DNA of 46,248 bases from Nitrospirota bacterium (lineage in GTDB: Bacteria; Nitrospirota; Thermodesulfovibrionia; Thermodesulfovibrionales; UBA1546), in contig JACRGY010000010.1 in the NCBI GenBank assembly GCA_016212165.1, positions 1-46,248 on the forward strand. Reading direction: 5' to 3'. The notes below the pieces were generated by a model. That model saw only the letters and a program-made list of their open reading frames with translations, ran no database searches and was not told the DNA's origin. Numbering within the stretch: the stretch's first letter is position 1; the number at the start of each line of letters is the position of its first letter. Both the position numbers and the translations under genes were made by a program. This document shows, piece after piece, positions 20,242 to 46,248 of the stretch.

Positions 20242-20591
20242 GCGGAAAAGATACGCTAGTGGATAAACTGCTCGCTAATTATCGCTTTTGGAGCCTTGCT
20301 GCAATAGGCTCATTCATTATACTTGTTTCCCTTTTTTTAGCTGCTGTTTTCATTCAGAGGATAAACTTCTTAATGCTTGTGATGGTCCTGTTGTTTGGCT
20401 TTCTCTGGATAGGCGCGACCTCAATAAGCCGCCATTCCTTTGTCCTTCTTAAAAGGTATATCGGCAGGGAAGGAGAAATAAGTATTTTAGAGTTCCTTTC
20501 AACGCAGCTTGTTGTCTTTCTATTTCCCTTTGCTTACAGGAAGGTAAAAAAAGAAGCAGAATTATACAGGAAGAAAAATTCAGCGGACTAA
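20238..20591 (+). CDS. Small membrane protein, unknown function
   Basis: A 117-residue protein with hydrophobic segments at about 17-37 and 43-63 and a third at about 82-98, and basic ends. Translation is coupled to maf through an ATGA overlap. The C-terminus overlaps the stop of the convergent dusB gene by 12 bp. I do not recognise the family; no catalytic motif is visible. Confidence 0.75.
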   Translation: MSGKDTLVDKLLANYRFWSLAAIGSFIILVSLFLAAVFIQRINFLMLVMVLLFGFLWIGATSISRHSFVLLKRYIGREGEISILEFLSTQLVVFLFPFAYRKVKKEAELYRKKNSAD

Positions 20592-21566
20592 AACATCCTC
20601 TTTAGCCGCCTTTAGCTCATTAATGGTTTCTATCATCTGATCTTTTGTCTTTGCATGGAATGCCTTTTCTCTCAGCGGCTTAATATCTCTAAGCCCTTTT
20701 GTATACCATACAAAAAATTTGCGGAAAAGCTTAATCCCTATTGTCTCGCCGTGGTAATCACTGCATAAATTCAGGTGTGTGAGCATCGTGTTGACTATCT
20801 CATCCCTGCAGCGTCTCTGCGGTATCGTTCCGCTTCTCATGAATTTCTCCGCATCCTTAAATATCCAGGGATTCCCCAGCGCACCTCTTGCTATTACCAC
20901 ACCGTCACATCCTGTCTCATCGAACATCTTTTTAATCAACTGGGGGGACAGCACATCTCCGCTGGCGATGACCGGTATTGCAAGCGCCTCTTTTACCTTT
21001 CTGATTACCTGATAATCCACCCCTCCTTTATACCCCTGCTCCCTTGTTCTTCCATGGATGAATAACCCCTTTATTCCTGAATCCTGTGCATAAAGCGCCG
21101 CATCTCTGGCATTTATACAGGCCTCATCCCAGCCTGAACGTATCTTTACAGTGACAGGGACCCTGGAATTTTCAACCAGAACTTTAAGCAGTTCACTTAA
21201 TCTGCGCGGCTCCTTAAGCAGGCTTGCTCCTTCGCCCCTGTTTGTTACCTTGCTTACCGGGCAGGCTGCATTAAAATCTATAATATCGAAAATGTCGTAT
21301 TCACTCAGCACTTCCAGCGCGCCGCGTATAAACTCAGTATCATTACCGAGCAATTGTATCCCCAGAGGCCTGTCAGAAGGAATCGTTGAAAGCATATCCA
21401 GTGTCTTTTTGTTCCGGCTGACAAGGGCGCGGCAGCTTATCATCTCTGAAAACGCAAATTTACACCCGAAAGAACGGTTAATCATACGAAACGGCAGATC
21501 ACTTATCCCTGACAGCGGGGCCAGAATATACGGAGAAGGGAATGTTACGTTGCCGATCTTAAGCAC
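20580..21566 (-). CDS. dusB: tRNA-dihydrouridine synthase (DusB-type)
   Basis: A 328-residue TIM-barrel flavoprotein. It starts with the FMN-binding YILAPLSGISDLPFR; the active-site Cys is C102 in NAACPVSKVTNRGEGASLL. Further motifs are VTVKIRSGWDE, LFIHGRTREQGYKGGVDY, VIASGDV and CDGVVIARGALGNPWIF, then the C-terminal helical tRNA-binding domain. It reduces uridine in the tRNA D-loop using FMN and NADPH. It lies downstream of priA, separated by a hairpin element at 21611-21657. Confidence 0.95.
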   Translation of the reverse strand: MLKIGNVTFPSPYILAPLSGISDLPFRMINRSFGCKFAFSEMISCRALVSRNKKTLDMLSTIPSDRPLGIQLLGNDTEFIRGALEVLSEYDIFDIIDFNAACPVSKVTNRGEGASLLKEPRRLSELLKVLVENSRVPVTVKIRSGWDEACINARDAALYAQDSGIKGLFIHGRTREQGYKGGVDYQVIRKVKEALAIPVIASGDVLSPQLIKKMFDETGCDGVVIARGALGNPWIFKDAEKFMRSGTIPQRRCRDEIVNTMLTHLNLCSDYHGETIGIKLFRKFFVWYTKGLRDIKPLREKAFHAKTKDQMIETINELKAAKEDVLVR

Positions 21567-21666: not shown

Positions 21667-23592
21667 TCAGGGGTCAACAGCAATGCTTATTTTTAGATTC
21701 TTGCATCCTTCAGCAAGCTTTAAAAATTCTTTTGCGGAAGAATAAAGCTTTGTCTTTGATGTGGTTTTTATGAGCATTGAATGTTCCTTGCGGCCTTTTC
21801 TGCTCATTGAGACTGAAGGCCCTAGAATCTCCAGGCCATTATTATCTTCAACAAGCCTTTCTATAACCTCGGCCACCCTGTTATCATCGTAATCACTGCC
21901 TTTAAAGGTAATAAGCGCAATTTTTGAATGCGGAGGATATGACATTTCTTTTCTTTTTGAGAGTTCTTCCTCGCAAAATCCGGCATAATCATGGTTTCTG
22001 ATAAATTTAAACAAATAGTTTCTGGGCATTCTTGTCTGGATAAACACCCTGCCCATGGGCTTTATCTTGTCAGCTATGGCAGACAGTTCCTGATATGCCT
22101 TTTCTATTGCCCTGAAGTCAGGCAGGTTTATATATATATCAGCATTCAGGACAACTCCCATATCAAATCCGTCTTGTGACGTCAGTCTTTTCGTCATCAG
22201 TTTTGTCCCGAGGACTATGGTTTCGCCTTTTATCATCTCTGGGAGGCCGGCCTTCGCTGCCTTCTTTTCTATCCTGTCGCTGTCGAGCCTGACAGGGTCA
22301 ATATTGAAAAGTTTTTTTATATTCTCCTCAACTCTCTGTATGCCTGTGCCGATGAGCTCAATTTTGAAGCTGCCGCATTTTTTGCACTTTTCAGGAGGCA
22401 GAGAGATAAAACCGCAGTAATGGCACCTGAGAACCTTATCATCCTTATGGAAAATCAATGGAATACCGCAACTGTTGCAGGTTTCTGTATTATCGCATTC
22501 TTTGCAGGTGAGCAATGAATACCCTTTCCGGTTAATGACAAACATAATCCGCTCATTTTTTTTGATAGCATATGATGCTGCATCAATCACGGTCTTTGAT
22601 ATGTTCTGGACAGGCTGTTTTTCATTATACATATTCAATATTCTTATCTTTGGCCTCTGGACAGATGCCTCAGGCTTCAGGAATGCATACTTGTTCTGTT
22701 TTACATTATAGATTGACTCAAGAGACGGGCATATTGAGGATAATACAACTGTTGCCTTTTCAAGATAACCCCTCATTACAGCAATATCCCTTGCATTATA
22801 TCTCAACCCTTCTTCTGCCTTGTATGAACTGCTGTGTTCCTGCATTACTGCAATCATAGATACGTTTTTCATTGGAGCAAAGACAGCTGCCCTTGTTCCG
22901 AGCACTACATTGCATTCGCCGGAAAGGATTTTTTCGATTGTGGCTGAACGTTGGCCATGGCTCATAGCGCTATGAAGTATACAGAGCTTCTCACCGGCAA
23001 TTTCCCTTATTACTGGTTCAATGTGGCTTATGTGTACAATCTCAGGGGCAAGGATTATTGCGCTCCCCTGTTGGCGTGCTTGAAGGAGCTTCCTGATAAA
23101 TGATATTTCATAAAAAGACGTTGGCGCATGAAGAAGAAATGTTTTGTATTCTTTGTTTGCAACAGACCCGTTAATTGCTGAAATTATATTTTCTTCGATT
23201 TCATTCAACGGCCTCTGCTCTGTGCCCTCTGCCCTCTGCTCTCTGGCCTGAGCTTTCCTTGCCTTTACTTTCCTGAATGCCTCTTTCGGAAGCATATTTT
23301 TTAAAACAACGCCTTTATTTGCAATATAGTAATCTGACATCCAGTCAAGTAATTTTAATAAAGGCGGTTCAAACATTGGAGCTTCGCCATGGATGTCGCT
23401 TATATAGCGCAAAGCGTTCGGCGCAGAGCGTGCAGCGTGTGACGATTTACTTAAGATTATTCCCTTTGCTGTCTGGTTTTTAAGGGGCGCGGAAACAAGC
23501 ATTCCCGGCAGCGCTTTATCAATAAGATTGTCAGGGCATTTATAGATTAACGGACCGAGATTTATGGGGAAAAGCACGTCAATAAATTCCAT
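21667..23592 (-). CDS. priA: PriA replication-restart protein with degenerate helicase motifs
   Basis: I take the ATG at 23592 (641 residues, MEFIDVLFPINLG); a GTG 15 bp upstream is possible. The 3'-end-binding N-terminal domain and the zinc region with eight cysteines (CKECDNTETCNSC...CHYCG...CKKC) are intact. The helicase motifs are not: Walker A (usually GVTGSGKTE) reads HAPTSFYEIS at about 155-164, the DEEH box reads MQEH at 250-253, and motif VI (usually QVAGRAGR) reads AIADKIKP. The protein is also shorter than the usual ~730. It may recognise forks and load the replicative helicase without unwinding; loss of the Walker motifs is known for Deinococcus radiodurans PriA. A low-complexity in-frame repeat (about 23211-23258) encodes residues about 114-128. 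Confidence 0.9.
   Translation of the reverse strand: MEFIDVLFPINLGPLIYKCPDNLIDKALPGMLVSAPLKNQTAKGIILSKSSHAARSAPNALRYISDIHGEAPMFEPPLLKLLDWMSDYYIANKGVVLKNMLPKEAFRKVKARKAQAREQRAEGTEQRPLNEIEENIISAINGSVANKEYKTFLLHAPTSFYEISFIRKLLQARQQGSAIILAPEIVHISHIEPVIREIAGEKLCILHSAMSHGQRSATIEKILSGECNVVLGTRAAVFAPMKNVSMIAVMQEHSSSYKAEEGLRYNARDIAVMRGYLEKATVVLSSICPSLESIYNVKQNKYAFLKPEASVQRPKIRILNMYNEKQPVQNISKTVIDAASYAIKKNERIMFVINRKGYSLLTCKECDNTETCNSCGIPLIFHKDDKVLRCHYCGFISLPPEKCKKCGSFKIELIGTGIQRVEENIKKLFNIDPVRLDSDRIEKKAAKAGLPEMIKGETIVLGTKLMTKRLTSQDGFDMGVVLNADIYINLPDFRAIEKAYQELSAIADKIKPMGRVFIQTRMPRNYLFKFIRNHDYAGFCEEELSKRKEMSYPPHSKIALITFKGSDYDDNRVAEVIERLVEDNNGLEILGPSVSMSRKGRKEHSMLIKTTSKTKLYSSAKEFLKLAEGCKNLKISIAVDP
23211..23258. 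repeat. CCTCTGC heptamer tract within priA
   Basis: Degenerate 7-bp CCTCTGC/CTCTGTG units. In priA they encode Arg/Glu/Ala-rich sequence (AQAREQRAEGTEQRP) between the DNA-binding and helicase domains, without a frame break. Confidence 0.65.
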
Positions 23593-23607
23593 GTTGGATT
23601 TTAGCAC

Positions 23608-23787: not shown

Positions 23788-24360
23788 TTACAACGCATCA
23801 TCAGGTTCCAGGAATCGCTGCTTGGCTCTATCCTTTTCCAACCACTTTTTAAGATATGCTTCCTTTTTTTCAAGAACACTTGCCCTATTTTCTTTTGCCC
23901 ACTCATACGCTTCCGGTTTATTTTCGATCAGTTGAGACTCATTGATCCAGGTTTTGACCTTATCTATCTGCAGTTCTTCCTTTGTTATAGGTCCCAAAGA
24001 AAAACGGGCCCTCCATGCCCCCATCCTTGGAAAAACCTGCACATAATAAGTTTTGCCTGACAAAACGTTTGCGTCCATAAAGTCCGCTGCCTCCGATATC
24101 ACCATAAAGCGATGTTCACCGGGTGAAGCAAAGTACGGCAATCTTTTTTTATACGGAATAAAGCCTATAAATTCCTCACCATCATACACAGCAGCATTGA
24201 TCAGATAACCAAGAGGTTCAGGCCGGATAAAATAAATGAGTGCTTTATCCTGCTTTACTGCTATACTCATGTTTGAAGTTTGAGAAAGTTTCATGTTTGG
24301 TGTGGCACATCCAAAAAGGGACAGCGCAAAAAATACGTATATCATCTTTCTGAAAATCAT
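23788..24360 (-). CDS. Lipoprotein, DUF2846-like
   Basis: The start at 24360 (190 residues) is chosen because GAGGAGGGGG lies directly upstream and gives a clean lipoprotein signal peptide MIFRKMIYVFFALSLFGC, with Cys18 as the lipidation site. The body has KALIYFIRPEPLGYLINAAVYDGEEFIGFIPYKKRLPYFASPGEHRFMV, the DUF2846 pattern, followed by a charged helical tail. It should sit in a membrane facing the periplasm; the function is unknown. It follows the next lipoprotein gene on the same strand by 126 bp. Together they form an accessory patch next to an integrase remnant. Confidence 0.83.
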   Translation of the reverse strand: MIFRKMIYVFFALSLFGCATPNMKLSQTSNMSIAVKQDKALIYFIRPEPLGYLINAAVYDGEEFIGFIPYKKRLPYFASPGEHRFMVISEAADFMDANVLSGKTYYVQVFPRMGAWRARFSLGPITKEELQIDKVKTWINESQLIENKPEAYEWAKENRASVLEKKEAYLKKWLEKDRAKQRFLEPDDAL

Positions 24361-24486
24361 TTTCCCCCTCCTCTGTATATTGAATGAATCGGAAAGACCT
24401 ACATCCAAATAACACTCTCCCCGAGTGAACTAATAATACTGGTTTTAGCGAAGTTTCTGTCGATCCGCTATAAGCGCTGTTTCGTC

Positions 24487-24957
24487 TTATTTTGTTGGCT
24501 TGTAATTCTGCAACAGCTCGTCAATCACTGGACCTATCTTCGCCTCTGTTCCTTGCCATTTGAATAATGAAAACCCGCCATCTGCTATCAGGTGATACTC
24601 GGCCGACCCAATCAGAAGTCTGTTCCGGTATATGTAGATCTCCGCGTGCGTTAAATAGGTCCCTAAATCCCAATTCCTGAGTGCCGTATACTGCAGGGTA
24701 AAATCTTTCTCACCTGATGTATAGCCGTTAGTTACGACGGAAGTAGATATACCATGACGCGAGCAGCCATCAATCAGTACCGAAATAAAATCCTGGGCTG
24801 CGACCTTCTCGTTTTTCTGGATAAAGATATGAGACATGTCGAGGCCGGCGTCAACGGGCCGTACCTTGACTGACGTACATCCTGATGTAAGCATTGCGGC
24901 AAAGCATATCGCTGCGAATACAAACATCAATGCTCTCGGATTGCGTTTATTGATCAT
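24487..24957 (-). CDS. Lipoprotein, Sbal_3080-like
   Basis: A 156-residue protein with a signal peptide and lipobox LTSGC (Cys27). The mature part (HIFIQKNEKVAAQDFISVLIDGCSRHGISTSVV...LQYTALRNWDLGTYLTHAEIYIYRNRLLIGSAEYHL) resembles the Sbal_3080 lipoprotein family as I remember it; the function is unknown. TTAAGGAGGAATC gives an excellent ribosome binding site. It is downstream of a possible 39-codon gene (24985-25104). Assignment to the named family is from memory of the pattern, not a search. Confidence 0.82.
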   Translation of the reverse strand: MINKRNPRALMFVFAAICFAAMLTSGCTSVKVRPVDAGLDMSHIFIQKNEKVAAQDFISVLIDGCSRHGISTSVVTNGYTSGEKDFTLQYTALRNWDLGTYLTHAEIYIYRNRLLIGSAEYHLIADGGFSLFKWQGTEAKIGPVIDELLQNYKPTK

Positions 24958-45131: not shown

Positions 45132-46248
45132 TTAGTATGCCGCCCTTCTCTTCCTCTGCCCGCGCTCAACAGCCACGCTGGGCCTGAAGGGCGCTCTTGC
45201 ACGAGGCGGACGTACAAACTCACGGTCCCGCGCAGGCGCAGGCTTCTTATAATCGAAACCTTCCATAAACCTGCGTTCTATTTTTTCACCCAGGACGCGC
45301 TCGATGCTGCGCACTGTTTCCCCGTCCTCATGTGTAATGAAGGTAAAGGCATCTCCTGTTTTTGCAGCACGGCCGGTTCTGCCGATACGGTGCGTATAGG
45401 CATCTACAGTGGCAGGAATATCGTAGTTGATAACATGAGATATGTTCGAGACATCTATGCCCCTGGCAGCAATATCAGTGGCAACGAGTATCTGGTACTT
45501 GCCGTCACGGAAACCATCGAGTGCAGCCTGCCGCCTATTCTGAGACAGATTTCCCTGTAATGATGACGCTCTGTAACCAGCCTTCTGCAGCTGCTCTCCA
45601 ACGCGCTTGGCCCGGTGCTTGGTGCGGGTGAAGACCAGTACTGATTCTGTATCTGTATGGCGCAGCAGTTCCATAAGAAGCGAGGTCTTCAGGTGCTGTT
45701 CTATTGGATATAAGGCATGAGATACTGTGTCTGCCGGAGCAGTATGCCCCACCTGAACTGTGACCGGATCGCTCAGTACATCTTTGGCAAGGCGGCGTAT
45801 CTCTTCCGGCATTGTGGCTGAAAAAAGCAGGGTCTGACGTTTCTTGGGGAGATGCTTAAGTATCCTCCGTATGTCCGGCAGAAAGCCCATATCAAACATA
45901 TGGTCTGCCTCATCAAGAACCAGCACCTCTGTCTGTGACAGGTCTACTGTGCCCTGGCCAATATGGTCGAGCAACCTGCCCGGGCATGCCACTATTATCT
46001 CTACGCCTCTGCGCAGTTTTTCAAATTGAGGATTTATGTTTACGCCGCCATATATGGTGACGCTGCGGAGGCCGGTCTTGCTGCCAAGTCCTGTAATATG
46101 TTCGTGTATCTGTTCGGCCAGTTCCCGGGTCGGGGCGATAACAAGGGCACGCACCTTCCGGCGTCCGCCCTGCATCAACTGGTGCAGGATAGGCAGCGCA
46201 AAGACAGCGGTCTTGACGGTGCCGGTCTGCGCCAGGCCCATAACAACA
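45132..46248 (-). CDS. DEAD-box RNA helicase (RhlE-like), 5' end outside the window
   Basis: The frame stays open to the right edge, so the N-terminus (Q motif) is missing. Visible motifs: Ia PTRELAEQ, II VLVLDEADHMFDMGF, III SATMPEEIRR, IV VLVFTRTKH, V TDIAARGIDVSNISHVINYD and VI HRIGRTGRA; a basic C-terminal tail (RAPFRPSVAVERGQRKRRAAY) follows. The Walker A reads AQTGTVKT where AQTGTGKT is expected: the Gly before the catalytic Lys is Val (GTC codon, 46215-46217). Such a change should harm ATP binding, unless it is a base-calling error at the contig end. Such helicases remodel rRNA and mRNA, often in the cold. Confidence 0.9.
   Translation of the reverse strand, partial: VVMGLAQTGTVKTAVFALPILHQLMQGGRRKVRALVIAPTRELAEQIHEHITGLGSKTGLRSVTIYGGVNINPQFEKLRRGVEIIVACPGRLLDHIGQGTVDLSQTEVLVLDEADHMFDMGFLPDIRRILKHLPKKRQTLLFSATMPEEIRRLAKDVLSDPVTVQVGHTAPADTVSHALYPIEQHLKTSLLMELLRHTDTESVLVFTRTKHRAKRVGEQLQKAGYRASSLQGNLSQNRRQAALDGFRDGKYQILVATDIAARGIDVSNISHVINYDIPATVDAYTHRIGRTGRAAKTGDAFTFITHEDGETVRSIERVLGEKIERRFMEGFDYKKPAPARDREFVRPPRARAPFRPSVAVERGQRKRRAAY

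What the first reader, a model, noticed from the sequence alone, without database searches (positions are those of the whole stretch)
22834..23133. PriA without helicase motifs
Walker A (HAPTSFYEIS), the DEEH box (MQEH) and motif VI (AIADKIKP) are all degenerate while the eight-cysteine zinc region and DNA-binding domain are kept. The gene is otherwise intact, so it probably acts as a fork-recognition and helicase-loading scaffold only. A parallel is known in Deinococcus radiodurans PriA.
Basis: partly seen in the sequence, partly recalled or inferred. Interest (0 to 1): 0.6.

Follow-up and report, generated by a model that had tools for sequence, protein, structure and literature searches.

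The report
Helicase-dead PriA across a bacterial order
The protein that restarts stalled DNA copying in this bacterium has lost every part needed to burn ATP and unwind DNA, and this holds for all relatives examined in its order of the phylum Nitrospirota, with a separate loss in another branch of the phylum, so the unwinding activity is dispensable in nature more often than has been published.

Summary
The gene at 21667-23607 (-) is a PriA ortholog with its 3'-DNA-binding domain and all eight zinc cysteines, but no Walker A (GVTGSGKTEV is replaced by APTSFYEISF), no Walker B/DEEH (MQEH) and no motif VI arginine (AIADKIKP). It is the only PriA in the genome. The loss is lineage-wide: 0 of 57 orthologs from 13 families of the order keep K+D+E, against 50 of 50 canonical orthologs, including all 13 from sister orders of the same class. 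A DNA pattern for the PriA P-loop hits 0 of 176 genomes of the order and 45 of 54 from the sister orders. A second set of Nitrospirota families (f27, f30, f35) lost the site too; one common origin is rejected (AU p = 0.016). Erosion is concentrated in nucleotide-binding motifs, and dN/dS is 0.12-0.15, so these are functional pseudohelicases, not decaying genes. Best reading: an ATP-independent fork-recognition and DnaB-recruitment scaffold, like Deinococcus radiodurans PriA, probably acting with DciA. No replacement restart helicase was found; RecG, PcrA and RecQ show no matching gain or loss. The pseudohelicase kind is known; its independent, order-wide fixation in Nitrospirota appears unreported.

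The parts
21667..23607 (-). priA ORF (646 aa from GTG; likely start ATG at 23592)
23287..23568 (-). 3'-DNA-binding domain (PF17764, 61 bits), retained
23101..23133 (-). former motif I/Walker A, LHAPTSFYEIS; the lysine position is Glu (Glu in 47 of 57 in the order)
22834..22848 (-). former motif II (DEEH), VMQEH; Mg-binding Asp and catalytic Glu lost, third-position Glu kept in 57 of 57
22771..22833 (-). loop SSSYKAEEGLRYNARDIAVMR after motif II, in the region of the PriA aromatic-rich fork-wedge loop; strongly retained (R272 and R278 57 of 57, Y261 56 of 57)
22717..22743 (-). former motif III (GSATPS -> SSICPS)
22375..22506 (-). cysteine-rich zinc region, eight Cys, all conserved 57 of 57
22180..22209 (-). 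former motif V (GTQMIAKG -> GTKLMTKR)
22057..22092 (-). former motif VI (QxxGRxGR -> QELSAIADKIKP), arginine finger lost
20580..21566 (-). dihydrouridine synthase (dus) 100 bp downstream on the same strand; neighbour only

Best explanation
This is an orthologous PriA that has become a pseudohelicase. It most likely recognises abandoned forks and D-loops through its 3'BD, helicase-fold lobes, retained fork-loop region and zinc region, and recruits DnaB without hydrolysing ATP, with DciA (present in every genome tested) as the probable loading partner. Forks with a double-stranded lagging arm would need another helicase or a nuclease to expose ssDNA. Shown here: orthology, single copy, loss of the ATP site, retention of the zinc and fork-loop residues, purifying selection, order-wide fixation and at least two losses in the phylum. 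Inferred: no ATPase, fork binding, DnaB or DciA contact.
For: PriA identity. One PriA in the genome. K+D+E triad 0 of 57 in the order and 0 of 19 in f27/f30/f35, against 50 of 50 canonical. P-loop DNA pattern 0 of 176 in the order, 45 of 54 in sister orders. Lost canonical positions concentrate in ATP-site motifs, 22 of 37 against 5 of 50 outside, Fisher p = 1e-6. Eight Cys 57 of 57 and 19 of 19. dN/dS 0.15 against the same-genus relative, 0.12-0.13 against two others, and 0.07-0.21 in the motif I-II stretch. DciA in 32 of 32 genomes, no DnaD or PriC in 26. Precedent: D. radiodurans PriA binds fork DNA and DnaB without ATPase, and K230R E. coli strains are viable (PMC4504706).
Against: No biochemistry. 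ATP could in principle be bound in a non-canonical way. The 2-sequence AlphaFold model was unusable, so there is no structural proof of a closed pocket. DnaB and DciA contacts are not testable here.
Confidence: 0.83

Rival explanations
1. The protein has left replication restart and serves another DNA-binding or structural role, while restart is done by a different system.
For: HD1 and HD2 are less conserved than in canonical PriA. Some families (f7, f9) are very divergent.
Against: Kept in 58 of 61 relatives and 55 of 56 good genomes. Fork-loop, zinc and C-terminal signatures are kept. No PriC or DnaD alternative was found.
Confidence: 0.08
2. The protein still binds or hydrolyses ATP through an unusual site, with the conserved HAP-S/T-x-x-Y/H-E sequence as a substitute P-loop.
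For: The former Walker A is not drifting freely: H, A, P and E are each found in 40-47 of 57.
Against: Every other nucleotide-contact motif (Q, Ia, II, III, V, VI) is lost together, Lys is mostly reversed to Glu, and a scan for a P-loop-like motif elsewhere in the proteins gave two isolated, non-conserved matches.
Confidence: 0.05
3. Decaying pseudogene, misassembly or contamination of a metagenome bin.
For: The genome is a 202-contig assembly with 8% estimated contamination.
Against: dN/dS about 0.15 or less, intact frame, and the same losses in 57 orthologs including single-contig genomes. A 93% identical gene lies on a 145 kb contig of a named Nitrospirae genome.
Confidence: 0.01

Closest known systems
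Deinococcus radiodurans PriA pseudohelicase (Lopper et al. 2015, PMC4504706)
   Same: PriA ortholog without a functional Walker A/B; DNA-binding and zinc regions kept; lineage-wide; no PriB/DnaT in D. radiodurans, no PriC or DnaD found here.
   Different: There Walker A has K->R and motif II is a poor match; here the P-loop is replaced altogether, Lys is usually Glu, and Q, Ia, III, V and VI are also gone. The Nitrospirota losses arose from canonical relatives inside the phylum.
Canonical PriA helicase (E. coli / K. pneumoniae, 8fak, 6dcr, 4nl4)
   Same: Domain order 3'BD-HD1-HD2 with inserted zinc region-CTD; fork-loop region and zinc cysteines conserved.
   Different: No ATPase motifs; winged-helix domain absent (also in most canonical sister-order PriAs).
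Actinobacterial PriA (from memory: annotated in public databases as lacking detectable helicase motifs)
   Same: Helicase motifs reported as missing.
   Different: Separate lineage with its own models (PRK14873 series; this protein scores only 71-162 bits there, against 230-413 for the best PRK05580 and TIGR00595 models). Not tested further here.
E. coli priA300 (K230R)
   Same: Helicase-dead PriA that supports restart in vivo (PMC4504706, PMC4752480).
   Different: A laboratory point mutant; here the whole active site is lost in nature.

Membership tests
PriA (primosomal protein N') | Sequence membership by curated model TIGR00595 | tested here: met
   345 bits against cut-off 230
PriA (primosomal protein N') | 3'BD domain | tested here: met
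   PF17764 E = 1e-16
PriA (primosomal protein N') | Eight-cysteine zinc region | tested here: met
   8 of 8 Cys, 57 of 57 in the order
PriA (primosomal protein N') | Active SF2 helicase motifs I, II, VI | tested here: not met
   All replaced; so it is a PriA ortholog but not a PriA helicase
PriA (primosomal protein N') | ATP-dependent 3'-5' unwinding | not testable with these tools
   Needs the purified protein
PriA pseudohelicase (as D. radiodurans) | Walker A lysine and Walker B acidic residues lost in an otherwise intact PriA | tested here: met
   Window: Lys->Glu, Asp->Met, Glu->Gln
PriA pseudohelicase (as D. radiodurans) | No other, canonical PriA in the genome | tested here: met
   One match in G000; no canonical P-loop in 176 order genomes
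PriA pseudohelicase (as D. radiodurans) | Binds ssDNA and forks, binds DnaB, no ATPase | not testable with these tools
   Shown for D. radiodurans in PMC4504706 only

The most novel reading that the evidence does not exclude
The former P-loop has been re-used. The order-specific, conserved H-A-P-[S/T]-x-x-[Y/H]-E motif, with a charge-reversing Lys->Glu at the catalytic lysine, may close the empty nucleotide pocket (for example by a salt bridge) and hold PriA permanently in the fork-bound, loader-recruiting conformation that E. coli PriA adopts only on forks with single-stranded lagging arms.
Probability: 0.15. Interest if true: 0.65.

Novelty: new member of a known kind. Interest (0 to 1): 0.5.

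Why it matters
PriA helicase motifs are described as well conserved across bacteria, with Deinococcus-Thermus as the exception (PMC4504706). At least two further losses inside one phylum, fixed across an order and next to canonical sister orders, make a natural experiment on what PriA unwinding is for, and separate its scaffold residues (zinc site, fork loop) from its motor residues. It also warns that automatic annotation as 'replication restart helicase PriA' is probably wrong about activity in these organisms.

Tried and rejected
(1) Compensation through RecG: helicase-dead PriA suppresses recG loss in E. coli (PMC4752480), so RecG might be missing here. It is present in 21 of 25 order genomes tested, missing only in f2 and two of three f3 genomes, and also missing in canonical f14: not linked. 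(2) A replacement 3'-5' helicase: PcrA/UvrD-like proteins occur in all groups, and RecQ is above its cut-off in only 1 of 13 order genomes: no gain seen. (3) DnaD or PriC as alternative restart proteins: none in 26 genomes. (4) One shared loss for both lineages: rejected by the tree and AU test. (5) Structure prediction: only two sequences were admissible, mean pLDDT 37, not used. (6) Winged-helix loss as part of the same event: the spacer is equally short in canonical sister orders.

Full report
What is there. The finding lies in a minus-strand ORF, 21667-23607 (646 aa from GTG; the conserved Met at 23592 is the likelier start). It is PriA: PF17764 3'BD, PriA zinc ribbon, TIGR00595 345 bits against a cut-off of 230, and 6dcr/8fak as closest solved structures. 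The stated coordinates run from the first base of motif I to the last base of the MQEH box; motif VI lies further downstream at 22057-22092.

The motifs. Against canonical PriA, Walker A GVTGSGKTEV reads APTSFYEISF, DEEH reads MQEH and QxxGRxGR reads QELSAIADKIKP. Of 87 positions at least 95% identical in 50 canonical Nitrospirota PriAs, 22 of 37 inside nucleotide-site motifs are lost in the order, against 5 of 50 elsewhere (Fisher p = 1e-6). So the erosion is targeted at ATP binding. By contrast, the eight zinc cysteines are 57 of 57, and the stretch after motif II, in the region of the aromatic-rich loop that PMC10175261 describes as wedged into the fork junction, is strongly kept (R272, R278 57 of 57; Y261 56 of 57). 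That the loop corresponds is read from sequence position, not from a structure.

How far it extends. The genome holds one PriA. A near relative at 93% identity is a named Nitrospirae bacterium (WPIF01000003.1). I read 57 orthologs from 13 families of the same order: none has K+D+E; 13 of 13 in sister orders of the class do, as do 37 of 37 in other canonical families of the phylum. TIGR00595 scores over the phylum show the same split: listed order genomes reach at most 377 bits, sister orders 572 or more. A DNA pattern for the PriA P-loop finds 0 of 176 order genomes and 45 of 54 sister-order genomes; most of the nine misses are incomplete genomes or family f18, whose sampled P-loop reads GIAGSGKTEV and falls outside the pattern.

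A second loss. Families f27, f30 and f35 of the same phylum also lack the site: 0 of 19 have the lysine (mostly Arg), though some keep the Asp or Asp-Glu. In a tree built without the motif columns, the order is one clade (SH-aLRT 100) and f27/f30 sit among canonical families. Holding all pseudohelicases together is rejected (p-AU 0.016). Whether f35 is a third loss is open. The tool does not name these families; genome sizes suggest Thermodesulfovibrio-like f9 and Nitrospira-like f27, which is a guess.

Is it functional. Nei-Gojobori dN/dS is 0.15 against the same-genus relative and 0.12-0.13 against two others (synonymous sites near saturation there), and 0.07-0.21 in the motif I-II stretch itself. 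The former P-loop shows new conservation: His 43, Ala 40, Pro 42 and Glu (at the lysine position) 47 of 57. This is selection on a working protein, not decay.

What it works with. DciA is in 32 of 32 genomes of all groups. DnaD-type and PriC proteins are absent. RecG, PcrA and RecQ do not track the loss. The simplest model is D. radiodurans-like: bind the fork, recruit DnaB, no unwinding (PMC4504706). In E. coli too, ATPase-dead PriA still assembles primosomes and the strains are viable (PMC4504706), and PMC10175261 cites helicase activity as not required for PriA-PriB restart in vivo.

Novelty. Paper searches for PriA pseudohelicases returned only the Deinococcus work, and none linking Nitrospirota to loss of PriA motifs; the library is partial. 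Helicase-less PriA in Actinobacteria is, from memory, noted in database annotation. So the kind is known; the independent, order-wide cases in Nitrospirota appear to be new.

Limits. ATPase loss is inferred from sequence. The structure model was too poor to use. Many genomes are metagenome bins, although single-contig genomes of the order (G019, G026, G028, G035) agree.

Noticed in passing
L095 (G222, family f18, same class): PriA with intact Walker A and B (GIAGSGKTEV, DEEQ) but degenerate motif VI (QLAEKVGTGE): possibly an early stage of helicase loss.
   Followed up: no
Families f1-f13, most of f14-f19, and f28: Spacer between 3'BD and motif I is only about 50-60 aa, too short for the winged-helix domain; canonical PriAs elsewhere in the phylum have a median of 117. 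Winged-helix loss appears older than, and independent of, helicase loss.
   Followed up: partly
Families f2, f3 (order) and f14 (class): G016, G028, G017, G029, G081, G213: No full-length RecG found; the best match is the Mfd-level hit, and G029 has a 515-aa partial RecG-like frame.
   Followed up: no
window 45132-46241 (-): ORF with a weak RecQ-model match typical of a DEAD-box helicase, near the contig end.
   Followed up: no
window 23788-24957 (-): Two ORFs upstream of priA with lipoprotein-like N-termini; one has only a sub-threshold DUF2846 match.
   Followed up: no
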